The notes below the pieces were generated by a model. That model made no database searches. It was given only the letters and a program-made list of their open reading frames with translations, and was not told where the DNA came from. From Motacilla alba alba (lineage: Eukaryota; Chordata; Aves; Passeriformes; Motacillidae): 64,000 bases of DNA. This document shows, piece after piece, positions 8,697 to 31,147 of this stretch. Where the stretch lies: the NCBI RefSeq assembly GCF_015832195.1, contig NC_052028.1:2027501-2091500 (forward strand). The letters are read 5' to 3'. The position numbers and the translations under genes are program-made. Position 1 is the stretch's first letter, and each line of letters opens with the position of its first letter.

Positions 8697-8755
8697 CCAC
8701 TTGTTCCAGGTCTCTGGGTCTGAGAGAAGCGCCAATCTGTGTTAGGCTGAGCTTG
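8697..8755 (-). CDS. PCDHG: Protocadherin gamma constant exon 1
   Basis: This 59-base exon encodes 19 complete codons reading QAQPNTDWRFSQTQRPGTS plus two bases (GG). It is the gamma-cluster constant region start (mammals: QAPPNTDWRFSQ...). Its length equals that of the mammalian exon as I remember it. On the minus strand it is preceded by a long pyrimidine tract ending TTTGCAG and followed by GTGAGT, a canonical acceptor and donor. It enters in phase 0, which matches the phase-0 ends of all ten complete variable exons upstream. Every gamma isoform should splice to it. The constant cytoplasmic region is known in mammals to bind signalling and trafficking partners. The exon is far too short to be found by open-frame length. 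Confidence 0.96.
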
Positions 8756-10788: not shown

Positions 10789-13221
10789 CCCATCGCAGGG
10801 ACTCGCTAAGGTGCTGGTCACCTGCTCATAGGCAGCCACGGTCTCCGCAGTGCTAGAATGGCTGAAGGGCTTTACAAAGAGGAAATCGCTCTGCTCAGAC
10901 ATGGGCGAGAAACAAGAGGTGTAATTCTGTGCCTGGGAGGTCAAGCCCGCTCCTCCCACGTCCAGGTACTTGATGAAGCCATCTGGCTTCATCTGCCCTC
11001 GGAAATGGGAGGCGGGCTTGCGGCCAGTCCCTCGGCAGCAACCCGCGAAGGTCCAGCTGGCGCTGCCAGCTTTGAGACACCGGGCAGCCACCAGCCCGAA
11101 CATCACGCAGGACACGAGGGAGATGGACACCAAGGAGATGATGAGGTAAAGAGTTAGGTTGGTATCCTCGGAAGAAGGCTGGGGGAGGTCCAAGGACTTG
11201 GAGAAGTCCTGCACGCTGCTTTCCTCCGGAGAAATGACTATTACCACGGAGGCCGAGAGGGACGGCGTGCCGTTGTCCCTCACTTCGACCACCAGCCTGT
11301 GGGAGTCTTCTGATTCCCTGAGAGCCTGTGCAAGCCTTATCTCTCCAGAGCGGCGTTCCACTTGGAAAGGCAAAGCCTCAGCAGACTCCTGCAGCTGGTA
11401 GGACAGCCAGGCATTATGGCCACTGTCAGCATCAACTGCTACAATTTTAGTTACCAGATAGCCAGGCTCTGCCAAGGCCGGGATGGCTTGGTGGAAGGCA
11501 GAGCCCTTGGGGACAGACGGGTAGACAATGTTGGGAGCATTGTCATTCTCGTCCAGGACAAACACATGGACCACAGCAGTGCTACTCAGAGCAGGAGACC
11601 CAGCATCCTTCACCTCCACCGGCACCTGGAACACCTTGTCCTGCTCGTAATCCAGAGCTCGCACGGTGTAGATGGTGCCGTTGTCCTGATCGATTCGGAA
11701 GTAGGTTGAGATAGGTGCATCCTGCATCCCATTGTCCAGGATGGAGTAAGACAGCTTGGCATTGCTACCCTCATCAGGATCCGATGCTGACACTGAAAAG
11801 ACAGAAGTTCCAGGGAGGGAGTTTTCCTGAACGTGAGCTGTATCAAAAGGGCTGGAGAAATTCGGTGCGTTATCATTCACGTCAGCAATGCGGAGATAAA
11901 AGGTTTTTTGTGTGGCCCTCTGGGGGGACCCTGAATCCACAGCCCTCACTGTGATGTTGTATCCACTGGCCTTCTCCCGATCAAGGGGACCACTGGTGAC
12001 CAGCGAGAAATGCTCTTTAAAAGATGACACTAGTTTAAATGGAAGCTCTTTTGCTATCTGCAGACGGACCTGCCCGTTGTCACCCGAATCGCTGTCCTTC
12101 ACACCAATGAGGGCAATCACCGTGCCTGGGGCTGCATCCTCCTGCACTGGGCTGGAGACAGAGGTCAGCACGATCTCTGGGCTGTTATCGTTGATATCAA
12201 TTAATTCCACTCGCAGGTGACAGTGGCCTTCCATGGCTGGGGATCCCTTGTCCCTGGCTCGAACCGCAATCTCGTAAGCACTGGATTCCTCATAATCCAG
12301 CGGGGCTTTGGTTCTGATCTCTCCTGTACGGGCATCTAAGGAGAACAGTTTGGTGAATTTACCAGGTGCGTTATTGCTGGTTTTGAAAGAATATTCCACG
12401 TCCCCGTTGGGACCTTCATCCAGGTCGGTGACATTCAGCTTGGTGACCAGAGTGCCCACTGGCACATTCTCCTCCAGAAGCACCTTGGATATGGGTGGGT
12501 CACAGACAGGAGGGTTGTCATTTGCATCCAAGACGTGGATGGTAACCCTGGCAGTGCCAGATTTCACGGGATTCCCTCCATCCAGGGCTGTCAGTGTTAG
12601 ATGATGAACAGGCACTTTCTCTCTATCCAGTGCTTTTTCAAGTACGATCTCGGGCATTTTAACACCATCTCCTCTCACGTTGATGCTCAGGGCAAAATGC
12701 TTGCTGGGGCTGAGCTCATAGGTGGAGATGGAGTTGGAGCCCATATCTGGGTCTTCTGCTACCTCCAAGGGGAGCCGAGTCCCAGGGTTGGCTACCTCGG
12801 TGATCTCCAACACCACCTCTGGCTTGGGGAACTGGGGCGCGTTGTCGTTCACGTCGAGGACGTCCACCTCAACACGGTGGAGCTGGAGGGGATTCTCCAT
12901 GACGAGTTGGAGGTGTAGAGAGCACGTGGGGCTCTGCCCACACAGTGCCTCCCGGTCCAGCCTGCTGTCCAGGAGCAGCACACCTGCCGCCAGGTCCACC
13001 TGGAAGTGCCGCTGCCCACCCTCGCTCACCAGGCGCAGGTTGCGGGCGGCCAGGCTCCGCACCTCCACCCCCAAGTCCTTGGCCAGGTCGCCCACAGAGA
13101 ATCCCGGCTCGCGATCCTCGGGCACGGAGTAGTGGAGCTGGGCGCAGCTGGGAGCCGGCAGGCAGGAGAGGGCTGCGAGCAGCAGCGGGAGCTGCCATGG
13201 CAAACTCTGTCCCGCGAGCAT
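10789..13221 (-). CDS. Protocadherin gamma C-type variable exon, 3'-most (C4-like)
   Basis: The exon encodes 811 codons, from an ATG that opens a good signal peptide (MLAGQSLPWQLPLLLAALSC..., about 28 residues) to a phase-0 donor, GATGGG|GTAAGA. The frame is open further upstream, but that extension is low-complexity and unlike a protocadherin. Six cadherin repeats are marked by DVNDN-type linkers near residues 123, 232, 342, 448 and 558 and by LDRE/LDYE motifs. A membrane span covers about 689-713, followed by a tail of about 98 residues. The tail contains KYLDVGG and CFSPMSEQSDFLFVKP. Mammalian C4, as I remember it, has KFVDVGG at the matching place and similar EC1 and EC4 text, so this may be the C4 counterpart although it lies 3' of C5. 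An RGD occurs at 183-185 in EC2. It is expected at the neuronal surface as a homophilic adhesion isoform. Confidence 0.93.
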
Positions 13222-13824
13222 CCCGTGCCGGGTGCGCGAACGGAGCAGCGCGGAGAGGAGCAGCGGCGGCTCCGCGCAGCCTCCCCCTCCTCCCCGCCCC
13301 CGCAGCCGGCCCCGGCAGCCGGAACCCCTGCGCCCCGGGGGGGTCCGAGCGGGTTGTGCAGGGAGGAAGCCGCCGCCGGAGCCGCCGGAGCCGGACAGGG
13401 AGGGATGGAGGAGGCGGGGGAGGGGGCGAGCGCAGCCCGGCCGGCTGAACCGCTTCTCGGTACGCAAAGACACACAAAGTCGGCGAGCGGAGGGGATGGA
13501 CCGAGTGACAGTTTTACGTCTCTCCACAGCCCCCTCCTCCTCCGCCTCCTCCTTTTTCTCTCCCTCCTCCTCCCCTTCTCCATCTCACCGCCTTCCCCAA
13601 AATACGCACGGCGTGGCCCTCCCCTTCCCCCGCTGCCGCCACTCCGCCCCCACAGCGCCGGGAGGGCGCCGGGGACTCCCGGCAGCGGGGAACCCGCTCC
13701 GCCCCGCCCGGCTGCTGGCACCGGGCACCGGCGGACACCCCCTCCCCAAAGCCGGTCGGTTCGGTACCGAGCCCCGCGAACACCGGGGTTGTGTTCAGGC
13801 TGGAGACCACACCCCCGAGCTCAC
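13222..13824 (-). promoter_or_regulatory. Presumed promoter and 5' UTR of the 3'-most C-type exon
   Basis: Only 603 bases separate this exon's start codon from the donor of the preceding exon, so its own promoter, if it has one, should lie here. The DNA is GC-rich, with a CT-rich run on the plus strand at about 13525-13590. No TATA box, CCAAT box or convincing CGCT-type block was seen. The boundaries are simply the space available. Confidence 0.4.
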
Positions 13825-16224
13825 CTCTCTGCACAGGGTGGGATCCGCGGAGGGTTTCACAAACATGAACTCGCTGATATCCGAGACCGGCGAAAAGCAG
13901 GAGCGGTAACGAGGGGCGGGGGGTGCCGTTGCTGTCACCGGCACGCCCATCACAGTGTCCCCTTTCTTAGGCTCATAGTGCAAGTGCCCAAAGATGTGGC
14001 TGGGAGGAGGCTGAAGCGTGTTCACGCTCTCCACGCAGCAGCCCTGGTTGGCAGGTGCAGAGCCCCGCCGGAGGCACCGAATGCCCAGTGCTGCCAGTGC
14101 CACCAGCGAGACGGTGGAGATGAGCACCAGGGACACAATCAGGTAAAGCGTAATAGTGGGCAAGCCCCCACCATCAGCGGCCTGAGCCTCGGAGCCCTGC
14201 AGGGCCTCTGGACCCTTCTCCTCCACCAGCACCACCAGTGTGACAGCTGTGGAGAGCGGGGGCTCCCCGGCGTCCCGCACCACCACCAGCAGTTCGTGCT
14301 CAGAGGCGTCCGTCTCCTGCAGAGCCCGCATGATCCGGACCTCCCCGGAACGCAGGGCCACGCTGAAAAGCCCCAGGTCTGGGGCTTCCACGAGGTGGTA
14401 GGACAGCCAGGCATTGCGCCCCGAGTCCGCATCTATTGCCACCACCTTGGTGATGAGGGCAGGAGGGACGATGGAGGGGGAAATTCGGAACTGAGTAGCA
14501 GAGTCCTCCCCAGCCCTGGGGAAATGCACCCGTGGGGCGTTGTCGTTCTGGTCCACTACAAAAACATGAACCAGTGTTCTGTTCCTCAGGGCCGGGGAGC
14601 CACCATCAGAGACCTCCACGTGGAACTGGAGATAGGTGGTTTGCTCATAGTCAAAAGGGAATTTGGCGGTGACCTGCCCATTCGTGGGATGTATCGAGAG
14701 GTAGCGAGTAGGATCCAGGCCTGGATCTGTCCCACCAGCTCGCAGGATGGAGTAGGACAGGCGGGAATTCTGCTCCGAGTCAGGGTCGGCAGCAGAGACT
14801 GTAACCAGCACACTGCCCACTGGATTGTTTTCTGCCACCAGCACTTCATAGGACGCTTGCTCAAACTGGGGAGCGTTGTCATTGACATCTATCAGGGTGA
14901 TTGGCAAGATGGTGTGGCGGGAGAGGGGGGGATTGCCCAGGTCCGAGGCAGAAACGGTGACATTGTAGTAGGCAACGTGCTCTCGGTCCAAACGGGTGCT
15001 GGTGAGCAGCGAGTACTGGTGCTCGTAGTCCTTACGCAGCTGGAAGGGAAGATCTGGAGACACGTGACACAGGACCTTGCCCTGCTCGCCAGAGTCCCTG
15101 TCTCTGACGTGTATCACAGCCACCACCGTGCCTGGCAGTGCATCCTCGCTCAGGGTGCTTGAGAAGGAGGTGAGAATGACCTCAGGGGCGTTGTCATTGA
15201 CATCCGTGATCTCCACCACCACGCTGCAGTGCTCCTCCATCGTGGGCGACCCCATGTCCTTGGCCTCCACTTCGATCTCATACACTGTGGCCTCCTCAAA
15301 GTCCAAGTTGCCTTGGACACGAATCTCCCCAGTTTGCTCATCGATGGCAAAGATCTGGCGTAAGGCAGCTGAGTTGTGGCTACTGAGGGAGTAGCGGATG
15401 TCTCCGTTGGGTCCTTCGTCCACATCCGTGGCATTTAACTTCACCACGAGGGTGCCCAGCGGCGAGTTCTCCACCAAGCGTGCTCCGTATGATGGTCTGT
15501 CAAAGACCGGGTGGTTGTCATTGGCATCCAGGACCTGAATAGTGATGCGTATCTTGCTGGACTGAGGGGGAGAGCCCCCATCTTCAGCAGTCAGGACCAG
15601 GTAGTGGAAAGCTCTGAATTCCCGGTCCAGGGCCCGCTCCAGCACCAGCTCAGGGAACTTCCCACCATCGGTGCGGGCCTTCACATTGAGGTTGAAGTTG
15701 TCATTGGCACTCAGGTGATAGGTCTGCAAGGTGTTGGTGCCCACGTCGGGGTCCTGGGCTGGCTGGATGGGGAAGCGGGCACCCAGAGACGCCAGCTCGT
15801 AGATGCGCAAGGAAACCTCATCGCTGGGGAACACCGGGGGGTTGTCATTGATGTCCAGGATCTCCACCTCGATACGGTAAAACTCCACCGGGTTCTCGAT
15901 GGCAAGTTTCAAGTGGAGGAAGCAGCGTGGGTTCTGCCCGCAGAGCTGCTCCCGGTCTATCCTCTCGCTGACCATAATAACGCCGGTGTTCACATTGACA
16001 GAGAAGTACTGGGAATCCGAATCCGACAGTACCTGCAGATTAGCTGCCGCCAGTTTAGCCACATCGGTGCCCAGGTCCTTGGCGATATTGCCCACAAAAG
16101 CACCCCGTGTGAGCTCCTCCGGGATGCTGTATCGGATCTGAGCAGATGAGCTGTGCAAGAACAAACAGAAGGAGAAGACACGCGGCAGCCCCAGGGACCG
16201 GCGCGCCTGCCCTGCCCTCGGCAT
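13825..16224 (-). CDS. Protocadherin gamma C-type variable exon, second from 3' end
   Basis: The exon encodes 800 codons, ending at a phase-0 donor AGAGAG|GTGAGC. The start chosen is the ATG opening MPRAGQARRSLGLPRVFSFC, a short basic stretch plus hydrophobic core ending near SSSA; an in-frame ATG 24 codons upstream is also possible. Six EC repeats have DINDN/DANDN/DVNDN linkers near residues 124, 233, 341, 447 and 558. The membrane span is about 691-715. The tail of about 85 residues has a double cysteine, a proline-rich stretch and CFSPVSDISEFMFVKP. It is clearly a diverged C-type sequence and not an A or B type. I cannot assign it to one mammalian gene: its tail motif resembles those of C5 and the next exon, and its position 3' of C5 has no mammalian equivalent. 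It should splice to constant exon 1. Confidence 0.92.
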
Positions 16225-16553
16225 CCTTGCCGGGTGGCCGGCCGGGGAGCGATGCCCTCGGCGCCGGGGGCCGCGCTCAGCGCTCGCCGCTCCCATTCAT
16301 TGTTTGGGGCGGACGCGGCTCGACGGGGCGGGGGGAGCGCTGCGCGCAGCCGCGCCGCCATTGGCTGCGGGCGCGGCGGCGCCGCTCCAATCGCCGCGCT
16401 GCTTCCCCCGGACAGCAACACCGGCGCCAATCACGGCCCGCGCGCCGCCGCCGCGCGCCGCGAACCGGCGCGGCCGCTCCGCGCCCCCCGCGGGGACCGC
16501 GCCGTCGGAGCGCCCGGCGCTGCCGCCGGACCCGCCCCGGCATCGCCGCTCAC
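16225..16553 (-). promoter_or_regulatory. Compact promoter region with three CCAAT boxes
   Basis: This 329-base gap between the C5 donor and the next start codon must hold the next exon's promoter if it has one. Three CCAAT/ATTGG pentamers occur at 16360-16364, 16387-16391 and 16427-16431. The first is CCAAT on the coding strand and the other two are inverted. They lie about 135-205 bases upstream of the start codon in CpG-rich DNA, the usual arrangement for an NF-Y-type TATA-less promoter. Function is inferred. Confidence 0.55.
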
Positions 16554-19007
16554 CTGGCCGCGCTCCCGCAGCGTGCCGGCCGCGGGCAGGAAAGCCCCGC
16601 TTGCCCTCGGCAGGGTGGCGGGGGTCGGGCAGGGCCGCAGGAAGGTGAAGTCGCTCCGCTCGGAGCCGGGGGAGAAGCAGGTGCTGTAGCACTGGGACGG
16701 GGAGTCGGTGGGTCGCAGCGTGACCTCCATGTACTTAAGGGTGCCGTCGGAGCTGAGCTGGAGCTTGGGGCTGGAGTGCTTGCAGAAGTCCCGGGAGGGC
16801 GACTCGCTGAGCCAGCAGCAGCAGTAGGGTGAGACGGCGGCGCGGCCCCGGCGCCGGAGGCACCGGGCGGCCAGGAGGGTGACGGTGGCCAGTGCCACCG
16901 TGCTAATGGCTGCCAGAGCGATGATCAGGTAGAAGGTCAGGTCCGGCTTCTCCTTGGCACCAGCCAGGAAATCCTGAGGCTTGAAGCTCTCATCCGGGGC
17001 CGCCTCCTCCAGGGCCACAGTGATGGTGGCGGTGGTGGAGAGCGGAGGGTCACCGTTGTCCGTCACCAGGACAACGAGCTGCTGCACTGCCATGTCGCTG
17101 TCCTGGAAGGCACGCGCCGTCCGCACCTCCCCGGTGTACAGCGACACATGGAACAAGGAGGGGTCGGTGGACTGTGGCAACAGTCGGTACGAGAGCCAGG
17201 CATTGTGCCCAGCATCTGCATCCACTGCTGTCACCTTGGCCACCAGGTAGCCCGGTGGGGCAGACAGTGGGACCCTCTGGGGTGCCGGCACATCGCTGTC
17301 ACTGGCAGGGTGCAGGATGGTGGGGGCGTGGTCATTCTGGTCCAGCACAAAGATGTAGACAGTAACATTGGCATAGAGAGGGGGGGACCCCGAGTCCCTC
17401 ACGAGCACTGACACTGGCAGAACCTGCAGCAGCTCGAAGTCGAAGGTGCTCTGAGCATAGAGATTACCATTGTCAGGGTTGATGTGGACAAAGGAAGAGA
17501 TGGGGGCATCCTGCACTTGGCCACTCTCTATGGAGTAAACAAGCCGGGAATTATCCCCATCGTCAGGGTCTGAGGCAGAGACGGTGCACAGCAGGGAGCC
17601 AGGCGGGTTGTTCTCCTGGAGAAAGGCATCGTAGGAGGGTTGCGAGAAGCGTGGGGGGTTGTCATTCACATCAGATATATTGAGGAGCAGCGTGAGTGTG
17701 GTGGTGAGGGCAGGAGAACCACCATCCTGGGCAATCAGCTCCACTGCGTACTGTGAGGTAGACTCTCGGTCCAGGCTCTTCTGGGTGACCAGGGAGAAGT
17801 GGTTCTGAAGGGACCTGATGGCAAAAGGCACATTGGGGGAGATCTCCAAACTCACATCCCCATTGGCCCCCGAGTCTCGGTCCCGTACATTGAAGAGCCC
17901 CACGACAGTCTCGGGTGGGGTGTCTTCTGGCACCGGATTCAACAGGGAGGTGAGCAGCACCTCCGGGGGGTTGTCATTGGCATCCTCCACTTGTACCTGC
18001 AGCACACAATTGCCCTCCATCTCCGGGACCCCTCCGTCGTGGGCTCTCACATAGATCTCGTAGAAACGTGATTCCTCAAAGTCCAGGGCCCCGCTCACCC
18101 GGACCTCACCAGAGCGGGGATCCAGGGCAAAGAGCCTCCGCACCGAGTCGGAGGTGTGAACCCCGAAGGAGTACTGTGTCTCCCCGTTGGGACCCTCATC
18201 GGGGTCAGACGCGTTGACCCGGAGGAGCACAGCCCCCACAGGTGTGTTCTCCGGGACTTTCACCTTGTATGTGGTGCGGTCAAAGGCGGGTGCGTTGTCA
18301 TTGACATCCAGGACCTGCACCGTTATCTGCGCCGTGCCCGAGCGCGCCGGGCTTCCCCCGTCCACGGCAGTCAGCACCAGCTGCACCTCTGGCTGCTCTT
18401 CCCGGTCCAGGGCACGCTCCAGCACTAGCTCCGGGAAGAGTTTGCCATCCGGCTGCTGCTTGACGTCCAGGGAGAAGTGGGAGTTGGGGCTCAGCCGGTA
18501 GGAGCTCACAGCGTTGGTGCCCACGTCGGGGTCCTGCGCGCTCTCCAGGGGGAAGCGCGCGGCCACCGTGGCAGACTCGGCGATGCGCAGGGTGCGGTGA
18601 GCGGTGGGGAAGCTCGGGGAGTTGTCATTCAGATCCAGGATCTCCACTTCCAGGCGGAAGAGCTGCAGGGGGTTCTCTGTCACCACCTGCACCGACAGCA
18701 CGCAGCTGGCAGCTGCTCCGCACAGACGCTCGCGGTCCAGCCGCTGGCTCACCACCAGCGCGCCGCTGTCCAGGCGCACGGTGAAGTAGCGCAAGCTCTC
18801 CTCTGAGCCCAGGCGCAGCCTGCGACCCGGCAGCTCCTCCACCTTCAAGCCCAGGTCCCGGGCCACGTTCCCCACCACGGTTCCCAACTCTGACTCCTCA
18901 ACCACCGAGTAGCGGATCTGCCCGGAGACCCGGCCCCAGCCGCAGAGCAAAAACAAACTCAGTACTTGCCATTTCCAGGCGGGTCGCTGGAGGCTGGCAC
19001 TCTCCAT
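16554..19007 (-). CDS. PCDHGC5: Protocadherin gamma-C5 variable exon
   Basis: The exon encodes 818 codons. The chosen ATG gives MESASLQRPAWKWQVLSLFL, which aligns without gaps to the mammalian C5 start (KWQVL after the same number of residues). Another ATG lies four codons upstream. After the signal peptide come QIRYSVVEESE and then six EC repeats with DLNDN, DVNDN and DANDN linkers. The membrane span is about 691-714, followed by a tail of about 104 residues. The tail carries GTLKYMEVTLRPTDS, CFSPGSERSDFTFLRP and a TLRERGQ end, all near-identical to mammalian C5 (ending TLRERSQ), which makes orthology secure. The donor is GGCCAG|GTGAGC, phase 0. In mammals C5 is the last variable exon; here two more follow. 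It is a neuronal homophilic adhesion isoform. Confidence 0.96.
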
Positions 19008-19246
19008 GTCCGTGCGCATCCGGCCCGGGACACGGCAGGCACTGAGGAACTGCGAATAAATCCCTGGGTCTCTCTTGCACGGCTTAGAAAACAGCTCCGG
19101 GGCTCCGGCAGGCTGCGGCTCCAACTGTCAGCCTCCAAGCAGAGGGGGTGGGCTGGGGGAGGGGAACTGAATCACAGCCCCAGCGCGGAGGTGGGAGGGG
19201 GGGTGGGGGAGAAGCAGATTTTCCCCCCCTCGCTTCAGATCAGCGC

Positions 19247-19254
19247 CCAATTGG
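19247..19254. promoter_or_regulatory. PCDHGC5: CCAATTGG palindrome upstream of C5
   Basis: A CCAAT box and an inverted CCAAT box overlap as CCAATTGG, 240 bases upstream of the C5 start codon, flanked by GC-rich sequence. CCAAT boxes also occur in the upstream regions of C3 and of the exon following C5, which suggests a shared promoter style. No CGCT block like that of the gamma-A exons was seen here. Confidence 0.4.
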
Positions 19255-20164
19255 CCGAGAGCTCCATCCCCTCTCGGCCGGCAGTGGCTCCGGAGGTGCG
19301 GGAAGCGGGGCCTGAGCCGGCAACAGCGGGGCTGCCACCCCCGGCCTCCCCTCTGCCAGCCTGACTCACTTGCTCCGACAGCTCGCTTTGCGTTCACAGG
19401 GAAACTGCACGTCCTGGCAGCCTGGAAGCAAGGTACAAGCCCTCCCTGTGTGCTCCCCCTCCACAATGGTGGCTTCACATCATGCCCACAGACAAAGGGC
19501 AGCTGTCATGAACGCAGGCCAAAGGACTTTTCATGCCGGATGAAAAGGTGCTTGTTAGAGCCCCGAGGTGCCAGGGGCTCTTCTCTCACCCCTCTTCTCC
19601 CCCTCAGCTACTGCTTTGGCTGCTGCCTGCACCTCATGATTGCCTCTCTGAGTGAGGCATCCCTGCCACCAGTACCACCACTGGCCAGGAGACCTTGCAC
19701 TGGGAGGGGGACACCCACCCTGCCAGCCCACCGTGGGAGTGACTGGCTGAAGGTGCAAAAGCAAAGGCAGGTGAGCCATTCAAAGCCAAAATACAATTGC
19801 TCCCAATGTACACCTGACTGGAAGCCACCTCCTCACCCTGGGGCAAGGAAGGGGTCAGTCTTCACAGTACCCAAATCACTGCAAACACACAGAGCCAGAC
19901 AATAAGGCCACCAGATCACCACAGGATCACAACACCAGGTCAGCATCTTGGTCTGGGAAGGAAGCCCAAGCCTCCCACCTGGCAGACACACACAGATACT
20001 CTGTGGCAGGTACAGCTTTGCAATCAGTCTCCTGAGGGCAGAAGCAGGGGTCTTAGGCTCCCCGGGGGGAGCACAGTAATTTCCTGCTCTCCCTGTCACA
20101 GACGATATTGGCAAGCTGCAGACTTTTAGTTCCATTCACATCCCTGCAGAAGTCTTGTGCAGTC

Positions 20165-20470
20165 AGAGTCACAGAATAGCCTGGGTTGGAAGGGACCTTA
20201 TAAATCATCTCATTGTGACCTCCTGCCGGCGGCAGGGACACCTTTCACTAGACCAGGTTGCTCAGAGTTCAATCCAGCCCAGCCTTGAACATTCCCAGGG
20301 ATGCGGCAGCCACAGCTTCTCTGCGTAGCCTGTACCAGTGCCTCACCACCCTCACAGGGAGGAATTTTTATACCTGTTATCTAATCTAAACCTTCTGTCA
20401 GTTAAAACCATTCCCTCTTGTCCTGTCACCACATGCTTTTTTAGAGTCCCTGTCCGCCTTCCGTCCTTGG
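20165..20470 (-). mobile_element. CR1 LINE 3' fragment
   Basis: The plus strand reads as a reverse-complemented CR1 end: AGTCACAGAATAGCCTGGG, then TTGGAAGGGACCTTATAAATC, ACTAGACCAGGTTGCTCAGAG, CCTTGAACATTCCCAGGGAT and CAGTGCCTCACCACCCTCAC, continuing to AACCATTCCCTCTTGTCCTG. This is one of the best-preserved CR1 copies in the window and a good indicator of an avian or other sauropsid genome. It is 5'-truncated, as is typical. Confidence 0.9.
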
Positions 20471-23047
20471 TGCACTGAAGGCCACCCTGCCCCTCCCTTG
20501 GGTGCACACAGATCCTGGGGCTGGCGGCTGCAGTGGTGTGTGTGCCTGCCTGGGATCCTGCCTGTCCCCACCACCTGGGCACCAGAGGGACCTGGGGAAT
20601 AGGTGGGAGAGGCTGCGGGCACCCGTGCAGTTACGGGGGATGGTGATGGGGACAGCATCCTTCTGCCGAGAGCAGGGACGGCGAAGGTGCTGCAGTCCGG
20701 GGACCTCCCTCCCGTCTGCAGCACCTCCCTGCCTATTCTAAGAGCCGTGAGGCGGGACCACCCTGCTGCCCGTCAGGGAGAGACACCGGGAGGAACCTTA
20801 TGAATGGTGAGAACACTGCCCGGGTCCCACCCACCGCCGGCTCCGGAGGAGCGGGGAGGCGTCCTTAAAGAGACAATGCAGAAAAACATTGGACAAGGGA
20901 TTCCCCAGCACACAGAGACCAATTCCTTCTTGTACATACTCATTCCCCCAGGGCTCCTGACGGTGCCACCAGCAGGAAGCTGTCACGGTAACCTTGGCTC
21001 TGGAATGTGCCCTGTCCCCATCCCAGGCTGAGCCCCAGACAGTGCAGCTGGGTGTCAGACACAGCTTTCTGCTGGCAATACAGGGTGCTGCACCCCTGGG
21101 GATGCGTTTGGTGCTGCTGCAGTGTCTCAGCAGAAGCCTCTGCAAAGCCCACAGAGCCTGGGAGAAACCACTCAGTGCCCTGAGATGGCTCAGCCACCAA
21201 GGACCTGGAGCAAGGGCTTTACGCGGGGATCCTGCTGCCGTTTGGGCCTGTCAGAGCTTGGGATGGGGACTGTGGGACAAAGCAGGGAGGCTATGGGGTG
21301 TCTAGGATGGAGAAGGAGATGTTCCTTATTCCACAGGGCCAGAGCTCACTCTATGGAGAGGCACCAAGCCAGACAACCCAGGGATGACTGGAGATCCTGC
21401 AGGTAGGATCCCTCATGGCAGGACACGCTACCTGCTAGAGACTGGGCCAGCACCCTTCCCCCTGCATCCCTTTTGGGGGGTGGCTGTGCCCTGCAGAGCA
21501 AGGAGGTGTAAAGCCTTTGCAGGCTTGACACAGTCTGTTGTCACCACAAAGACTGAAAATCCAGGGCCCAGAGCCAGCCCAGCTGATTTCTCACTGCCAG
21601 TGCCTTTCCAGTGCAGTACTGGAGAGTAGGGGGGAGTCATGGCTCAGGCTCTGGCTTGCTGCCCTCCTTCCACCCCCACTCTCAAATCATTTATTGCCCT
21701 CACCCCCAAAGGCATCTTGTCAGGACGTTTAGGTGGAGGGGACATCCTTGTCCCCAGCCATAGCCCAGCCCACACAATGCAGAGGAACACTTGCTGCTGC
21801 AGCTGCTGCAGCCATTCTCACCTGCCACAAATCAGAAGTGCTGAGTCTGAGCAGTGACGCAAGCAGGGGAAAAAATAAAAAGGCATAAAATAATTCTGAG
21901 AGGTTTCTGCCTCCGTCTGTGATTTGGCCACACTGAGCAGGCAGCACACGCAGCCTCACAGCCATGAACAGCTTCCGCTGCACCTCACTTCCTTCTGCTC
22001 TGAGGAACCAGTCACTCCTACCCACTGCCTCCCAGGAAGGACAAATTACCAGCACCAACGACCTTGGAAAATCCATCAGATCCACACTCCCCCTCCACTG
22101 GACCCACTACCTGGCCTCATCTCTGAAGACTGAAGCATTCCTGTAATTGAAAGCTTTCAAATTAAGCAGCACAATTCTCATCGGAGGAGAAGCACAGAAG
22201 CTGCTGCTATGCGCAAACCTTCCAGCCTGCAGTCAGGACACCAGACATCAACCAGAGACAGCATTTACAAATCATGCAGAGCTTGAAACGGGGTTTTTGA
22301 ACAACATCTGAGTGGACGACTCACCACCCTTCTCAGAGCCAAAGGCCAGCTCAGCAGAGCCCTGCAACAATTGGGGCATCCTGCAATCCCACCCCCTCCC
22401 CCAAAGCGAACATCAGCACAGAACTTCCATGGACATAAAACCGGAACCATTCAGGAGCCAAACGTGAGGAACGGCACAGATGGAAGGGACTGCTCTATGA
22501 CCATGGTCTGTCAGAGGAGCCAGCATCATCCTTCAGCTTTGCGTGCTGCACTGCGAGAGGCGACACGCCGATCCCCAGCTCCCAGCCCATCTGCACCCCC
22601 AGCTCTCCAGCCCCCACCAAGTCACGACGCACAGAAATTACATTCCCCCGCAGTGCAAGTGCTCCCCTTGGCTCTCCTTTTGCAAAGGGAAGGAAATACC
22701 ATTAACAACAAACTTCGTGCCAAGGATTAACAAGTGGTTTCAAGCTGACCTCAGCCTCCACCGGTTACTCATGCAAGGCGTACCCAAAACTGCCCCCAAA
22801 AGACGTATGATTGCCAGCATGGGGAAACTGACTCACTTGATCCTGCTCGTCACAGTGCAAAAGTCATCAGCCCTCAGGATGGCCCATTTGACTCCAAAGA
22901 ACACCTGTTCAGCTGTAGCTGAACTCTTCAGGGTCGTGGCGCGAGTGGATGTCCCTCCCAACCCCAACACGCAACCACACGCGGACGGCACAAACGAACC
23001 GCGGCTCTGCCCAGCGCTGGGACACGCCAAGGAAGGAGCTACGTTAC

Positions 23048-25480
23048 CTCAGCAGGTGTGGGGAGCCGGCTGGCGGTGCCCACAATCTGGTGGTACAGCC
23101 CTGGCTCCCCATTCCTTATGGTGCCCTGGCGGCTCCCCAAGGGGCTGGAAGTGAAGGGCTTTTTACACAGGAGATCACTCTGGCGAGAGTCTGTGGTGAG
23201 ATAGACCTGGTGGTAGAAGCTGGGTGGCGTGAAGCCGCCCCTCACGGCATCAATGTGGTGGAAGGGCCCTGGTGTCCTGTACGTGGTGCTCCTGGAGCTG
23301 TTGTACAGCTCCCTTGACTGCCTCCACTTGTAGCACTTGAAGATGCCCACGGACAACATGGTGATGAAGAAGGCTGCTGACACCAAAATCACAGCCAGGA
23401 TGAGATAGAAAGTCACATGTCTCCTGGGATCATTGGCAGGTGCCACATCAGTGAGGTCAGTGAGCACCTCCTTGACCATCTCAGCCACAGAGATGGAGAT
23501 GGTGGCACTGGTGGACAGCACAGGCTCCCCATGGTCTTTCAGCAGGATGACCAAGGTGTGCTCGGGAGCGTCATCCTCGCGGAGCTGGCGGGCCGTGAAG
23601 ATCTCCCCGTTGTGCAGCCCAACCGAGAAGAGGCTGGGGTCAGTGGCCTGCAGCAGGGTATAGGAGATCCAGGCATTGTACCCTGCATCCGCATCCACCG
23701 CCACCACCTTGGTGACCATGTGGCTGGCGGGAGTGCCTGGTGCCACCACATCGGTGTAGGTGGCGGTGGTGTTGGGGTGAGGGTACAGCACCGTTGGGGC
23801 ATTGTCATTGAGGTCAGTGACAAACACACTGACTGAGACATTAGTGGCCAGAGGCGGAAAGCCGCCGTCCTGGACCTGCACCATCATGTTGAACTCCACC
23901 TGGTCCTCATGGTCCAGGGAGGTGAGCAGGTAGAGGGTGCCATTCTCCCGGTTGATGGAGAAGAGGTGGCCAAAAGTGGTGTCACCCTGCAAAAGGGTAT
24001 AGGAGAGGTGGGCATTGCGCCCGAGGTCTGGATCCGTGGCACTCACGTTAAGGATGGGGATGCCAGGCATGTTGTTCTCCAGAACATAGACATCATAGGA
24101 GTCCTGGGATGACCTGGGAGCGTTGTCATTGACATCTGACACCTGCACCAGGATGTGTTTTACTGCAGACAAGGGTGGTGAGCCCGAGTCCTTGGCTGTG
24201 ATAGTGATGTTATACTCTGCTGCCTTTTCCCGGTCCAGAGCTCCTTCTGTTTTCAATGTGTAGTAATTTTTGAGGGAGGAGCTGAGCATGAACGGGATCC
24301 CAGGGGAAATAAAACAGTTCACCAGGCCATTGTCATGGGAGTCCAAGTCTGTTACACTCAGCAGAGCTACGACCGTCCCTGGGGCTGCGTCTTCAGGCAC
24401 AGGGCTGTAGACAGAAGTCACTGTCACCTCTGGAGCATTGTCATTCACATCCACGACTTCCACCAGCACTTTGCAATGAGCCACACCAGGAACAACTCCC
24501 TTGTCTTTAGCCTGTAAGTAAATCTCGTACAACTTTGTTTCCTCATAGTCCAGCTGTCCCTTGACCCTCAACTCCCCTGTGGCTGAGTCCAGAGCAAAGA
24601 GTTCTCGTACCTTGGCGGGGGTGTGGCTGCTGAAGGAGTAGACGATGTCTCCATTGGGCCCATCATCCAGGTCGTACGCACTGATCCTGGCGACCAGGGT
24701 ACCGCTGGGCGTGTTCTCCCTCACACTCGCCTTATAGGTGGACTGGTTGAAGACCGGGGCATTATCGTTGGCATCTACAACGTCAATGTGGATCTGCACG
24801 TGGGCCGACCGTGGCGGGCTGCCTCCATCCAGCGCAGTCAAGACCAAATTCAGCTCCCTTTGCTCCTCCCTGTCCAGCTCCTTCTCTAACACCAATTCCG
24901 CGTACTTGCTGCCATCCACCCTCGTCTGCACGTCGAGCGCAAAGTTCGGGTTGGCGCTGAGCTGGTAGGTCTGCAAAGAGTTAATTCCCACATCGGGATC
25001 TTGCGCGCTCTCTAGCGGGAAGCGCGCTCCGGCAGCCACCGACTCACTGATTTCCAGCCTCGCCTGGCTGCTGGGAAAAACCGGGTCGTTGTCATTGATG
25101 TCCTGGATTTCCACGGTGCCGCTGTACAGCTCGAGCGGGTTTTCCACCACGATCTCAAAGCTGAGGGAGCAGGGAGAGAGCGCGCCGCAAAGCTCCTCCC
25201 GGTCTATCCTCTCGTTCACCAGCAGCGCCCCGCTCGTCAGATCCACCCCGAAGTACTTCTTGTTGCCGCCGGACACCACCCGCAATCGGCGCCCCGGCAG
25301 CCGCCCGAGGTCCAGCGCCAGGTCGGCTACCACGTTCCCCACCGCGGAGCCTCTCCGCGCCTCCTCGGGGATCGCATAGCGAATCGCGGCGGAAACCCAG
25401 TCGGAAACGCCGAACAAAAGCAAGAGGCTCAGTACCTGCCCCGTCGTCACCCCGCGGCTCCTCACAGCAACGCCGTTCAT
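23048..25480 (-). CDS. PCDHGC3: Protocadherin gamma-C3 variable exon
   Basis: The exon encodes 811 codons from MNGVAVRSRGVTTGQVLSLL to a phase-0 donor GCTGAG|GTAACG. Signal peptide about 1-30, EC1 starting IRYAIPEE, DxNDN linkers near residues 128, 237, 343, 448 and 557, a membrane span about 691-714, and a 97-residue tail. The tail has FKCYKWRQSRELY, YRTPGPFHHIDAVRGG, FYHQVYLTTDSRQSD and GSRQGTIRNGEPGLYHQ. Mammalian C3 carries nearly the same series (KVYKWKQSRDLY, YRTPGPS, DAVRGG, YHQVYLTTDSRRSD), so the assignment is firm. Known role: the most broadly expressed gamma C isoform, acting in neuronal and glial cell adhesion and recognition and in dendrite branching. It separates the repeated A/B group from the remaining C-type exons. 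Confidence 0.97.
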
Positions 25481-25806: not shown

Positions 25807-28696
25807 CGCAGGGAGCGCGGCCACCTCGGCCCCAGGACACGGGGCTCGAGCGGGCAGGGCCTGCAGGGAGAGCGCAGCCCTGCGAGAGACCCCGCCACAG
25901 AAACAGCCAGGCGGGGGGAGCGCTGGCAGAGGCCGGGTAAACCGGGCACAGGGACTGCGTGTGTGGACAAGAAGCTGTAAAAGTCGACAGAGTGACGCCA
26001 AAAGGGGCGATACGGAGACGTGGGGTGTTTGGGGTGCGTCCCGGGAACACCTCGCTGGAATGAGGCAGCGGGAGTAAGAAAGGGAGGTGGAGAGGGCGGG
26101 AGGGTCCTCCGGGGTACGCAGGGTGCCAGGGAGAGCCAGCACCGGCACGACGCGCCAGCTCCCAGTGTTTCTCAGGACCTTCAGGATGCCGGTCCTCCCA
26201 CCCAAGTGCTTGGCCAGCCCCTTCCGGGGAGGAAGCCCCTTTCAAGACGTCGGGACGTCGCTGCTCAGTATGCCACCAAAGCAGCGTGGCCGGCAAAGCG
26301 ACATTGATTTCGTGCTGCCGCGTTATAAGCAGCTCCTCCGGCCGCAACACTGAGTCTCGCCGCGGGGCGGCTCCCGCCGCTGGATTTTCAGGAGCATCGC
26401 CCCTCCCGCGGGATCCCCACTGCCACCACTATCCCAGCAGGCTTCGTCCCCGACAAACCGCAGAAATCTCGGTTTAATATGCCCTCCTACTCTCGCAGTC
26501 TCCCAGGCTGCTCCCCGGTACTTTTTTCCACCAGCTGGACTCAGGGCAATCACACTCTGCGACCCGCGGTGCCGGTTCACCGGGGTGGGAGCGGATCCCG
26601 TTCCCGCGCAGCAACAGCCCGGCAGGTCACAGCACCGGCGGTGCCTGGTCGAAAACTTGCCTTTGGGTTGTTGTTACTGTCATTAACAACTCGTGCTACG
26701 TCGGCTTTTCCGATTTTTCCCAATTTTTACGCACACATAAGGATAAAATTACCGAAATCCCGGCATTCGTCGTCTGCCACCCGCAGAACTGCCCGGTTCT
26801 CACGGGGTAATTAAAAGGGGACGAGGATGCTTGATAAGGGAGCGTCAGGCACCCTGCGAAAACCCAGCTGTGACACAGCGCCCAGGTGGCATCCCACAGC
26901 CGGCACTGATAAGGAAGACAAAAACCGGACTAGAAATCAGCGGCCACGCGTTCATTCGCTCATGGAGGCTCCCAAAGCCTTGCAGAACTGGCTCGGAAAC
27001 TTGCGGCGGGTTAATTGTTACCCCGCTAATCGTGGGGCTGAGCTCGTAGGGGCTGCAAGCCACCCGCACCAGCGCTGGACAGCGACATTCGCCAGAGCGA
27101 GAGGGATCTCGACTCTGCCCGCGTGTCCTCGCCCCGCACAATCCTAAAAGCTGCCCTGAGCACAGGGGATCCGCCCGGAGACGCAGCAGTTCGGCGCGTA
27201 CATGAAGAATCGGCAATATCAAAGAGTCGGCGCAATCTGTCCTATCTACATGCTCAGCTATTTCCTTTTCTCCTGATTAATCGTTGCCAAAAGATAAAGT
27301 TTATTAGCGCTATTTATCACTTATCGCCTGTTCACAGAATGTGATAAAAGTTCACATAGCGTTCACATGTTTTAGGGTTTCACACAAATAAAATCCAATA
27401 TGAGTCATCTAACGTTCCCAAAGCACTTCTTTTCTCACAGAAAACCAAATCCCAATTTTCTTTCTTACATATAATCTAAAACCAAGAAAATCCACAGCTC
27501 TCTTCTAGCCAATCTTGAAATAGTCTTCAGCGACTTATTTCTGTGAAATAAACTCTTTTCCCAACCACTCTAAATTCTGAATCCTTTTTCCAATCAGTCC
27601 CCTTTTTAGGTTCTTCCTACATGCGATTTCTCAGTGTGAGGACCACAGTTCTCAAGTAATTTCGTCCCTATGTACGAGTGCACACACCACCCGTACCAGA
27701 GAACCTTCTCCGTTTAATCCCAGCAGTAGTGGGATGGCCAAGCAGCGAAGAGATGAGCAGGAAAGAGATTTTAGGGAAAGCATGAAAGACAGGACATTTT
27801 CATCTACCGTATTTAAATTAATCTGCAGACATTACATCTCCTCCACCTTGACGGGAAGCCTGAATATTGCAGACGACTCTTCAGAGCGCCTGAAAGCGCC
27901 GCTTTGAGGGAGAGGAGTGAAAAAGTATAACAGCTAAGGGGGAAGACGCCTTCCCCTGCACCAGGAATTCCTCCGGGGACGGGTTCAAGCCAAATCCCAG
28001 CCTGAGCCGCTCACATCGGCATTTTCCCCGACTCCACTCCACGGAAGCCGGTGGCAGCGGGCAACAAAAAGCTCCTTCTGCTCGATGCCACGCTTGGGGC
28101 TACACTGAAGCACCAGCTCCGGTCGTACAGACGGAGAGGGAAAGTTGGGTTACGGGTGTACACCACACCTTCTGTTAAAGCGGTTCAGAGCGCTAAGGAA
28201 CCGAGCTGGCCAGAAAGAACTCCAGCGTAGCTGCCTCACTGAGTAAACACTCCGGGATAGATCACACATAATTATCGCGTAAAAGAGCCCAAATGCGGCT
28301 GAGACAATTAGTGGTCACTAGACACAGGCGAAAGGATTGTCTCAGCTTCAGGCTCCACGGCACTTTTGTTCCCGCTCCACCCCGAGTCCACCTCACCACC
28401 CCAGTTCGGTGAAACTCGCAGCTGTCTGTCCTTCTCCAGAACGGACAGAAGTGCGGACAACATTTGCGTCGTTCCTCGGGGGAAGCCAGCAATTTGCAGA
28501 GAAGACTTAGCAGGTCAAAAGGATGAGCCAAGGTCTGAAGTACACCCCCACTCACTCACATCCCCCCGCCCGTGAGCTAGTGAGCAGTGCGCCGGCACGT
28601 TCACATCTGCCGGCTCCCCACTGATCACCCACAGCAGAACAGAGGAAAAAAAGATTCACAAAAACTCACAGAGAGGGACCGTAGGGCAGAGCTCAC

Positions 28697-31147
28697 CTGT
28701 GCTGAGCTCCCAGGGCTAGGAGGGTCCTCCCCAGAACGAGTGCCTGAGTCGGGATCAGAGGACGGGAGACCGGCAGACAAGGCTGCCGCCCCTGGTCTCA
28801 GGAACGTGAAGTCCTTCTGCCCCGACTCGGAGGCCAAACACACCTCGTAGGAATAGGGCAAGGGCAGCGTGCTGCTGCAGTAGTTGTACGGTGCTTTTGA
28901 GCCCAAGGTGGAATACAGTTCCTTATCAGAAGTTATAAAAATGGGAGGGCTCCTCGACTGTCGACATTTGAAGAAAAAAACAAAAATGACCGTACAGACG
29001 AATAATAAGGACACGACGGAGAGCGAAACAACAAGAATGAGGTTCAGATCAGACGCCAGGAGGGACACAGCGTCTCTGTCGCTCAGCTCCGGCAGCGCCT
29101 CCTGCAAGCTCTCGGCCAGCACCACGTGCAGCGTGGCCGTGGCCGACAGCGCCGGCTGCCCGTGGTCCTTCACCACGGCCACCACACGCTGCTTGGCCGC
29201 GTCCCGCTCGGACACGGCGCGCGCCGTGCGCACCTCGCCGCTGTGCAGCCCCACGCGGAACAGCGCCGGCTCCGACGCCGCCACCAGCTCGTACGACAGC
29301 CACGCGTTGCGCCCCGCGTCCGCGTCCACCGCCACCACCTTGGCCACCAGGTAGCCGGCCTCGGCCGAGCGCGGCACCACCTCGAAAGGCGCCGCCGCCC
29401 CTCCCGCCGCCTCTCCCGCCGCCGCCGCCGCCGCCGCCGGCCACAGCACCCTGGGCGCGTTGTCGTTGCGGTCCAGCACGAAGACGCGCACCGTGGCCGT
29501 GGAGCTGCGCGCCGGCGAGCCGCCGTCCTGCGCCCGCACGGCCACCGCGAACTCGCGGCACCGCTCGTAGTCCAAGGAGCGCTGCGCGTACAGCGCGCCG
29601 CTCCGCGCCTCCACCGACACGAGCGGCGCCGCGCCCGCCGCGCCCGCGCTGCCGCCCGCCAGCCAGTAGCTCACGCGCCCGTTGGCGCCCGCGTCCGCGT
29701 CCCGCGCCTGCACGCGCAGCACCAGCGCGCCCGCCGCGTTGTTCTCCGCCACGTACGCGCTGTACGCCGCCTCCTCGAACACCGGCGCGTTGTCGTTCAC
29801 GTCCGACACCTCCAGCACCAGCTCCCTGCTGCTCCGCAGCGCCGGCCTGCCCCGGTCCCGAGCCACCACCGTCACGCGGTGCTCGCACGCCTGCTCGCGG
29901 TCCAGCGCGCTCGCCGTCACCACCTTGTACGAGCCGCCCGACGACGCCACCAGCGACAGCGGCGCCTCGCCCGACAGCTCGCACGACACCTGACCGTTCT
30001 CGCCCGAATCAGGATCGTCCACGTTCAGCAGAGCCACCACGGTGCCGACTGGAGCGTCCTCGGGCACCGGGCTCGACAGTGACAGAATCGTGATTTCGGG
30101 CGCGTTGTCATTCACGTCCAGCACCTCCACCTCCACCTTGCAGTGCGCCACCAAACCGCCACCGTCCCTTGCCTGCACCAGCAACACGTAACCTCGCGTG
30201 TCCTCAAAATCCAGCTCCTCCTGCAGACTGATCGCCCCGCTGTCCACATCCACTGTGAACTTCTGAAGCACCTTAGCCGGCATTTTCCCAAAGCCGTAGG
30301 TGATCCGGGCGTTGGTGCCGGCATCGGCATCGGAGGCAGAGATGTTCAGCACCGTCGATCCCAGAGGCGCGTCCTCGCGCAGGCTGACGCGGTACCGGTC
30401 CTGCGCGAACACGGGTGGGTTGTCATTGGCGTCGGTGACGTTGATCCAGAGCTGGGCGGTGCCACTCCGGGGCGGGTCTCCGCCATCCAGCGCAGTCAGC
30501 AGCAGACGCAGGCTCGGCTCGCTCTCTCGGTCCAGTGCACGGCGCAGCACCAGCTCTGGAAACTTGCTGCCGTCCTGGCTCTCTTTCACCTCCACTGCGA
30601 AGTACCCGTTAGCCTCCAGCTGATAGCCCTGCAGAGAGTTACTGCCCACGTCCGCGTCCTCGGCCACATCCACGGAAAATCGGGCACCAGTAGGTGTAGA
30701 CTCAATTATTTCGTAGTGGATATTTTCCTTAAGAAAGCGGGGTGCGTTGTCGTTGACGTCCTGAATGTCCACCTCGACGCGAAAAACGTTCAGCGGGTTG
30801 TGCACCAGCGCCTCGAAGCTGACGGAGCAGGTCGCCGAGTCGCCGCACATCTCCTCCCGGTCCAGCCTCTCGTTCACGTACAGGTTCCCGTTCTCCTCAT
30901 CCACCGTGAAGTATTTCAGCTGCTTCTTGCCGGCAGACGCCACCTGCAGCTTGCGCGCCGGCAGCTCGTCGGCGCTGAGCCCCAGGTCCCGCGCCAGCGG
31001 CCCCACGAGCGAGCCTCTGCCCAGCTCCTCGGCGATGGCGTAGCGGACCCGCTCGGCCGCCGCCCGGCAGCACACGCACAGCAGCACCGCGGCCAGCAGC
31101 GCTCGCCCGCCGCCCGGCCCGCGCCTCTGCCGCCGCCTCCCCGCCAT
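28697..31147 (-). CDS. PCDHGB: Protocadherin gamma-B-type variable exon with distinct membrane/tail segment
   Basis: The exon encodes 817 codons from [20 protein letters not shown] (signal peptide about 31 residues, as in the other gamma-B copies) to a phase-0 donor GCACAG|GTGAGC. Six EC repeats. The 5' UTR, EC1 start and late EC4-EC6 are almost identical to the gamma-B exons at 38830 and 50890; the middle differs. Just after [11 protein letters not shown] the sequence departs entirely: a different membrane span (about 702-726) and a 91-residue tail with [29 protein letters not shown] and KDFTFLRP. The gamma-B tails share only [13 protein letters not shown] residues. This is the last exon before C3. 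Its tail and canonical donor look like an older, unhomogenised gamma-B sequence; the ectodomain appears overwritten by gene conversion. Known role of the class: homophilic neuronal recognition. Confidence 0.92.
29418..29439 (-). repeat. PCDHGB: GCC trinucleotide run coding polyalanine
   Basis: An in-frame GCC/GGC run encodes eight alanines after LWP in the EC5-EC6 boundary region. Run length differs among the gamma-B copies. Confidence 0.85.

What the first reader, a model, noticed from the sequence alone, without database searches (positions are those of the whole stretch)
10789..19007. Two C-type variable exons lie 3' of the PCDHGC5 orthologue, and none lies between C3 and C5
C3 and C5 are identified by near-complete tail matches to mammals. 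In mammals the order is C3, C4, C5, then the constant exons. Here the order is C3, (about 4 kb without an exon), C5, exon X (13825), exon Y (10789), constant. X and Y are intact, phase-0 and diverged from all A/B types. Y has C4-like features (KYLDVGG against KFVDVGG; similar EC1 and EC4 stretches). Either C4 sits in a different position, or the sauropsid lineage keeps C-type isoforms that mammals lost.
Basis: partly seen in the sequence, partly recalled or inferred. Interest (0 to 1): 0.75.

Follow-up and report, generated by a model that had tools for sequence, protein, structure and literature searches.

The report
Extra C-type gamma protocadherins in birds
This bird keeps two old neuronal adhesion-protein exons that sit just after the gene known as PCDHGC5; they match exons already described in a lizard, have relatives in amphibians and are not known in mammals, so the arrangement is real but mostly not new.

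Summary
On the minus strand the order is C3, 4 kb without an exon, C5, X, Y, constant exon 1. X and Y are intact variable exons with six cadherin repeats, a transmembrane segment and a short tail, and end in canonical phase-0 donors at 13825 and 10789. They are not copies of C5: each falls in its own 100/100 clade with crocodilian, turtle and lizard proteins, plus a newt (X) or a caecilian (Y). A rattlesnake gene model runs C3, C5, X, Y, constant. Jiang et al. 2009 already reported five C-types, gamma-c3 to gamma-c7, in the anole lizard, so X and Y are most likely bird gamma-c6 and gamma-c7. 'Y is a displaced C4' is not supported: mammalian C4 groups with C5 (97/91 on EC1-3), though some partitions do not exclude Y and Y's tail weakly resembles C4's. 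'Sauropsids keep C-types that mammals lost' is supported. No remnant was found between C3 and C5; tortoises have a further C-type upstream of X. Open question: mouse gamma-C4 is essential for neuronal survival, yet none of the non-mammalian sequences I held is its clear orthologue. Transcription and splicing of X and Y could not be tested.

The parts
10789..13221 (-). variable exon Y (most likely gamma-c7): signal peptide, EC1-EC6, TM, 97-aa variable tail; donor GG|GTAAGA
   Evidence: Y clade 100/100
13825..16224 (-). variable exon X (most likely gamma-c6); ORF open to 16296, start taken at the Met before the signal peptide (16224); donor GAG|GTGAGC
   Evidence: X clade 100/100
16554..19019 (-). 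variable exon PCDHGC5 orthologue; donor CAG|GTGAGC
23048..25480 (-). variable exon PCDHGC3 orthologue; donor GAG|GTAACG
8697..8755 (-). gamma constant exon 1 (59 nt), the expected acceptor of the gamma variable exons
19020..23047 (-). C3-C5 interval with no C-type exon or recognisable remnant (19020-23038 searched)
13222..13824 (-). 603-bp interval X donor to Y start, must hold Y's promoter if Y has its own
   Evidence: coordinates; promoter scan inconclusive
16225..16553 (-). 329-bp interval C5 donor to X start, must hold X's promoter if X has its own
   Evidence: coordinates; promoter scan inconclusive

Best explanation
X and Y are bird orthologues of the anole C-type gamma-protocadherin exons gamma-c6 and gamma-c7, two ancient variable exons found in sauropsids and in at least one amphibian each, and not known in mammals. 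Each would be transcribed from its own promoter just 3' of the preceding exon and spliced at its phase-0 donor to constant exon 1 at 8755, giving a six-cadherin-domain adhesion receptor with its own short tail ahead of the shared gamma cytoplasmic domain. EC1-4 would set homophilic recognition and the tail isoform-specific signalling. Shown: order, intact frames, donors, domains, clade membership, sequence conservation, and the same order in gene models of other sauropsids. Inferred: presence in the tetrapod ancestor and loss in mammals (from the tree and the published mammal gene set), transcription, splicing, homophilic binding, constitutive C-type expression, and the c6/c7 naming, which rests on exon order.
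For: Domains: one Cadherin_2, five Cadherin stretches and Cadherin_C_2 in each. EC1-3 tree of 33 rows: X clade 100/100 with rhea, gharial, pig-nosed turtle, anole and newt; Y clade 100/100 with emu, crocodile, tortoise, bearded dragon and caecilian. X+C5 rejected (AU p 0.007), Y+C5 weakly (0.046). EC1-3 identity of window X to rhea and window Y to emu is 94% each. Gene models joining X or Y to the constant domain: P0001, P0006, P0013, P0017 (X), P0123, P0154, P0175, P0180 (Y). Fused models keep the order: rattlesnake P0009 C3-C5-X-Y-constant, canary P0010 C3-C5-X, crow P0002 X-Y-constant, sea turtle P0007 C5-X. The anole has gamma-c3 to c7, with c3 and c5 = human c3 and c5, c4/c6/c7 without direct human orthologue, and c7 = coelacanth gamma-24 (PMC2764143, parts 1-4 of 5 read). 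The anole X row P0017 comes from a third-party annotation record, the type of deposit that paper names. No named mammal in the top-120 lists for X and Y exceeded 45% identity.
Against: No RNA evidence. Seven hits from unnamed assemblies that I inspected (six of X or Y, one mammalian C4) run past the donor into the intron, so they are genomic reading frames and do not show splicing. Joined gene models may be homology-based. I could not see the full record name of the anole sequence, so X = c6 rests on exon order. No coelacanth row was available. Mammalian absence rests on the published gene set and on capped top-120 lists. Two newt proteins match X (P0077, P0078), so X may not be single-copy everywhere. 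The Xenopus tropicalis study found no clear one-to-one gamma orthologues with mouse and a possible C-type expansion (PMC4978886, parts 2-3 of 6 read), so C-type histories differ between lineages.
Confidence: 0.86

Rival explanations
1. Y is the true orthologue of mammalian gamma-C4, moved from between C3 and C5 to the 3' end (or the reverse in mammals).
For: Against the mink C4 tail, window Y scores 54 (0 of 500 shuffles as high), caecilian Y 62 (0), emu Y 49 (1), tortoise Y 45 (3), bearded dragon Y 38 (8), against C5 42 (29), X 29 (242) and C3 20 (485). Among the clades compared, C4's TM is nearest Y (46.0%) and its EC4 nearly so (54.8%). The EC4-tail tree does not reject it (p 0.17), nor does EC1-6 (p 0.106).
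Against: C4 groups with C5 on EC1-3 (97/91), EC1-6 (98/95) and EC1-tail (94/91). C4+Y AU p 0.043, 0.035, 0.037 on EC1-3 full, EC1-3 pruned and EC1-tail. In the tail test other types also score: newt X 64 (0 of 500), locus L003 50 (3), alpha-C2-like L005 40 (14), while crocodile Y scores 25 (297; that model lacks the KYLDV stretch). L005 equals Y by tail identity and exceeds it in EC4 for mink (55.8% against 54.8%). Position differs.
Confidence: 0.1
2. X and Y are recent bird or sauropsid duplicates of C5.
For: Tandem position directly 3' of C5.
Against: 41-65% nucleotide identity in every domain for all six pairs among C3, C5, X and Y, with no homogenised part; an amphibian member in each clade; X+C5 AU p 0.007 and Y+C5 0.046.
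Confidence: 0.02
3. X or Y is present but not used as a C-type isoform (not transcribed, or spliced only rarely).
For: No transcript seen here; very short intervals (329 and 603 bp) for separate promoters; no convincing promoter element recognised.
Against: Frames kept with 94% EC1-3 identity between the window and a ratite for both X and Y, and clades reaching amphibians; canonical donors.
Confidence: 0.05

Closest known systems
Anole gamma-c6 and gamma-c7 protocadherin variable exons (Jiang et al. 2009, PMC2764143, parts 1-4 of 5 read; figures not held)
   Same: Two C-types numbered after gamma-c5, without direct human orthologue; anole X protein P0017 is in the X clade and bearded dragon P0180 in the Y clade.
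   Different: The bird has no exon between C3 and C5, where the anole numbering puts gamma-c4; tortoises have a further C-type (P0094, P0012) upstream of X.
Mammalian PCDHGC4
   Same: C-type gamma exon spliced to the same constant exons; short tail stretch IKFVDVGG against IKYLDVGG.
   Different: Lies between C3 and C5 (order as given in the finding and recalled); groups with C5, not Y. In mouse essential for neuronal survival, through its variable cytoplasmic domain (PMC6957209 and the preprint PMC11975030, passages seen); nothing is known for Y.
PCDHGC5
   Same: Adjacent C-type exon, same architecture.
   Different: Separate clade; X and Y do not fall inside it.

Membership tests
C-type gamma-protocadherin variable exon | one uninterrupted exon coding signal peptide, six cadherin repeats, TM and short tail | tested here: met
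   (X and Y)
C-type gamma-protocadherin variable exon | lies 3' of the A/B exons and 5' of the gamma constant exons, same strand | tested here: met
C-type gamma-protocadherin variable exon | phase-0 canonical donor compatible with constant exon 1 | tested here: met
C-type gamma-protocadherin variable exon | diverged from A/B types and not homogenised with neighbours | tested here: met
   the A and B rows are long branches
C-type gamma-protocadherin variable exon | spliced to the constant exons in mRNA | not testable with these tools
   only gene models; no RNA
C-type gamma-protocadherin variable exon | constitutive rather than stochastic expression | not testable with these tools
   no expression data; promoter scans inconclusive
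anole gamma-c6 / gamma-c7 | clade with the lizard exon | tested here: met
   (anole P0017 with X, bearded dragon P0180 with Y); c6/c7 names inferred from exon order
orthologue of mammalian PCDHGC4 (exon Y) | groups with mammalian C4 in a tree | tested here: not met
   C4 with C5; EC4-tail alone unresolved
orthologue of mammalian PCDHGC4 (exon Y) | C4-type variable tail | tested here: inconclusive
orthologue of mammalian PCDHGC4 (exon Y) | position between C3 and C5 | tested here: not met

The most novel reading that the evidence does not exclude
Exon Y carries the survival-signalling variable tail that in mammals resides on gamma-C4, so that in birds the last gamma exon, not a C4 orthologue, does gamma-C4's essential job; C4 itself would then be either a C5-related ectodomain with a Y-like tail or a mammal-lineage survivor that other tetrapods lost.
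Probability: 0.12. Interest if true: 0.7.

Novelty: new member of a known kind. Interest (0 to 1): 0.36.

Why it matters
C-type protocadherins include isoforms with named, isoform-specific jobs in mice. [quoted passage not shown] This bird has C-types not known in mammals and, in the sequences I could reach, no clear gamma-C4. That makes a direct question: which isoform protects bird neurons?

Tried and rejected
Promoter elements: a scan for a CTCF-like site (matrix recalled) gave best scores of 3.5-4.1 upstream of C3, C5, X and Y, below the median of shuffles (6.7). Searches for a shared block found a CGCT-containing block upstream of 11 of 13 beta-region exons, which are close paralogues; the matches at 4 of 4 alpha exons run across an ATG and look like coding sequence. 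With a matrix from these and the one X match, the best scores upstream of C3, C5, X and Y were reached by 13, 23, 2 and 27 of 60 shuffles. X has one exact CGAGCGCTG 62 bases before its start, at the edge of chance (2 of 60). Inconclusive.

RNA evidence: I hoped that hits from unnamed assemblies were transcripts; all seven inspected (P0003, P0005, P0016, P0121, P0122, P0183, P0196) run past the donor into the intron.

Mouse C4 as a probe: the 120 listed hits hold four mammalian C4 clusters (P0195, P0196, P0197, P0200); the rest are other protocadherins, many of them long fusions whose scores sum over many repeats, so a single-exon orthologue at about 60% identity could be missed. Of the 287 proteins held, the 283 outside those four clusters match mouse C4 EC1-4 at 57.0% or less where the best alignment is 100 aa or longer. 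The top ones are bird models, many labelled PCDGM; the three dissected whose rows stayed in view (P0134, P0170, P0171) are chimeras of C5 N-terminal repeats and Y (part of that output was cut).

Tortoise-type c4 elsewhere in the bird genome: six identical requests did not complete, so only five intervals of the window were searched, and loss from the whole genome is not shown.

AU tests: six groupings were tested, two and C4+Y in three further data sets. Only C4+Y and the C5-copy reading were named before a tree was seen; nothing is corrected for number of tests. All rows were chosen by me.

Literature (listings only unless said): searches for gamma-c6/c7 and for gamma-c4 evolution found 0 papers; the anole paper surfaced; no paper on an avian gamma cluster was seen among those listed. 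The anole paper (2009) says only the alpha subcluster had been characterised in chicken. Passages of the fugu paper PMC1852091 were not used.
Full report
What is there. The window lies at G000:C13:2027501-2091500 of a 1.07 Gb genome, at the 3' end of the gamma-protocadherin cluster, read on the minus strand. The top hit of exon X is a 99% identical model from New World sparrows (Passerellidae). The last four variable exons are C3 (25480-23048), C5 (19019-16554), X (16224-13825) and Y (13221-10789), followed by constant exon 1 at 8755-8697. Matches to constant exons 2 and 3 lie beyond the window edge, in a stretch fetched as L009 (5061-4966 and 417-184), same orientation. The four variable exons translate without stops and end at canonical donors in phase 0. 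X and Y each match one Cadherin_2, five Cadherin stretches and the Cadherin_C_2 tail family. In the genome search with Y, none of the other 55 matches exceeds 48% identity (only the best candidates are scored).

Window C3 EC1-3 matches mouse gamma-C3 (4zi8) with 429 bits, and window C5 EC1-3 matches 4zpo with 466 bits, against 387 for mouse gamma-C4 (that 4zpo is gamma-C5 is recalled). The tree agrees.

X and Y are old. I built an EC1-3 tree of 33 rows: 6 window exons, 4 other loci of the same genome, 3 mouse rows read from PDB alignments, and 20 rows that I chose from the 287 proteins held as unmixed exons or exon pieces. X groups with rhea, gharial, pig-nosed turtle, anole and newt at 100/100; Y with emu, tortoise, crocodile, bearded dragon and caecilian at 100/100. 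The same clades appear at 100/100 in EC4-tail, EC1-6 and EC1-tail trees. X with C5 is rejected (AU p 0.007) and Y with C5 weakly (0.046); X with Y is not rejected (0.056). The six pairs among C3, C5, X and Y are 41-65% identical at the DNA level, domain by domain. So the 'recent copies of C5' refutation fails.

The order is not peculiar to this assembly. Annotated fusion models, which I take to follow genomic order, read through neighbouring exons: a rattlesnake model runs C3, C5, X, Y, constant; canary C3, C5, X; sea turtle C5, X; crow X, Y, constant. Two tortoise models begin with another C-type (P0094, P0012) and continue into X, which fits an exon upstream of X like the anole's gamma-c4. 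In this bird the C3-C5 interval has no trace of it; the rest of the genome could not be searched for it.

It was published in another species. Jiang and colleagues (PMC2764143; parts 1-4 of 5 read; figures not held) described anole gamma-c3 to gamma-c7, called c3 and c5 orthologues of the human genes, found no direct human orthologue for c4, c6 and c7, paired c4 and c7 with coelacanth gamma-22 and gamma-24, and argued for differential loss of C-types. By order X is c6 and Y is c7. Databases hold bird and reptile models of both under labels such as 'gamma-C5-like' or 'gamma-C3'. My searches listed no paper naming them in birds, within an open-licence library. What is added here is the bird members, the newt X and caecilian Y, which put both in the tetrapod ancestor, and an explicit test against mammalian C4. 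In Xenopus tropicalis a study found no clear one-to-one gamma orthologues with mouse and a possible C-type expansion (PMC4978886, parts 2-3 of 6), so this end of the cluster has a different history in each lineage.

Is Y the missing C4? Probably not. C4 joins C5 at 97/91 (EC1-3, full and pruned), 98/95 (EC1-6) and 94/91 (EC1-tail); forcing C4 with Y gives AU p 0.043, 0.035, 0.106 and 0.037; EC4-tail alone settles nothing (0.17 for Y, 0.27 for C5). These p values sit near the threshold, are uncorrected, and C4 has a long stem, so I call this not supported rather than excluded. C4 with the tortoise exon (0.031) and with X (0.009) are also disfavoured. The tail evidence is mixed. Against the mink C4 tail, window Y scores 54 (0 of 500 shuffles as high), caecilian Y 62 (0) and emu Y 49 (1), but newt X 64 (0), locus L003 50 (3), C5 42 (29), the alpha-C2-like locus L005 40 (14) and crocodile Y 25 (297). 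By identity the Y tails average 23.9% (6 rows) and L005 24.4%. L005 is called alpha-C2-like from its place and tail, which I did not test further. Domain by domain C4 is roughly as far from one old C-type as from another.

How it most likely works. Each exon has its own promoter and is spliced to the shared constant exons; EC1-4 mediates homophilic recognition, as shown for the four mouse C-types tested in PMC8901172 (passages), and the short tail gives isoform-specific signalling. For X and Y this is inference from architecture. I could not show transcription: promoter scans were inconclusive and no sequence held proves splicing.

Why it still deserves a look. Mouse gamma-C4 is the essential gamma isoform for neuronal survival (PMC6957209, passages) and its variable tail alone was reported sufficient (PMC11975030, a preprint, passages). 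In this window no C-type exon groups with gamma-C4 other than C5 as a sister, and outside four mammalian C4 clusters the best match to mouse gamma-C4 EC1-4 among the 287 proteins held was 57.0%. Whether another C-type, Y being the first candidate by its tail, does that work in birds is testable.

Noticed in passing
28628-61084 (six gamma A and B exons compared): Three gamma-A exons are 100% identical (rounded) at the DNA level in EC5, EC6 and tail while EC3 is 75-80%; three gamma-B exons are 100% identical in EC5 and EC6 while EC2 and EC3 fall to 53-80%. This looks like strong gene conversion; the anole paper reports only limited conversion there (another measure). Collapsed assembly was not excluded.
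   Followed up: partly
28628-31147: The most 3' gamma-B exon shares EC5-EC6 with the other two (100% DNA identity) but its TM and tail differ (44%), a mosaic exon.
   Followed up: no
16225-16553 and 13222-13824: C5, X and Y are packed with only 329 and 603 bp between one donor and the next start codon, against 4 kb between C3 and C5.
   Followed up: partly
13405-15162: A 585-aa open frame on the plus strand lies antisense to exon X; most likely a by-product of GC-rich coding sequence.
   Followed up: no
about 1040-1340 and 1440-1650: Tandem repeats with units holding GGGGAGGAAGCTGGGAGAGAGGAAGAG and AGGCTCGGGGCAGTGTCCCC, seen by eye beyond constant exon 1.
   Followed up: no
L003 (G000:C13:2523391-2525736): A protocadherin exon at the far 5' end of the matches in the cluster, not in the C3, C5, X or Y clades; possibly the Pcdh-delta gene that mammals lack.
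   Followed up: no
and one search hits labelled PCDGM: The bird 'PCDGM' gene models seen (P0134, P0170, P0171) are chimeras of C5 N-terminal repeats and exon Y, so bird C5 entries under this label need care.
   Followed up: partly
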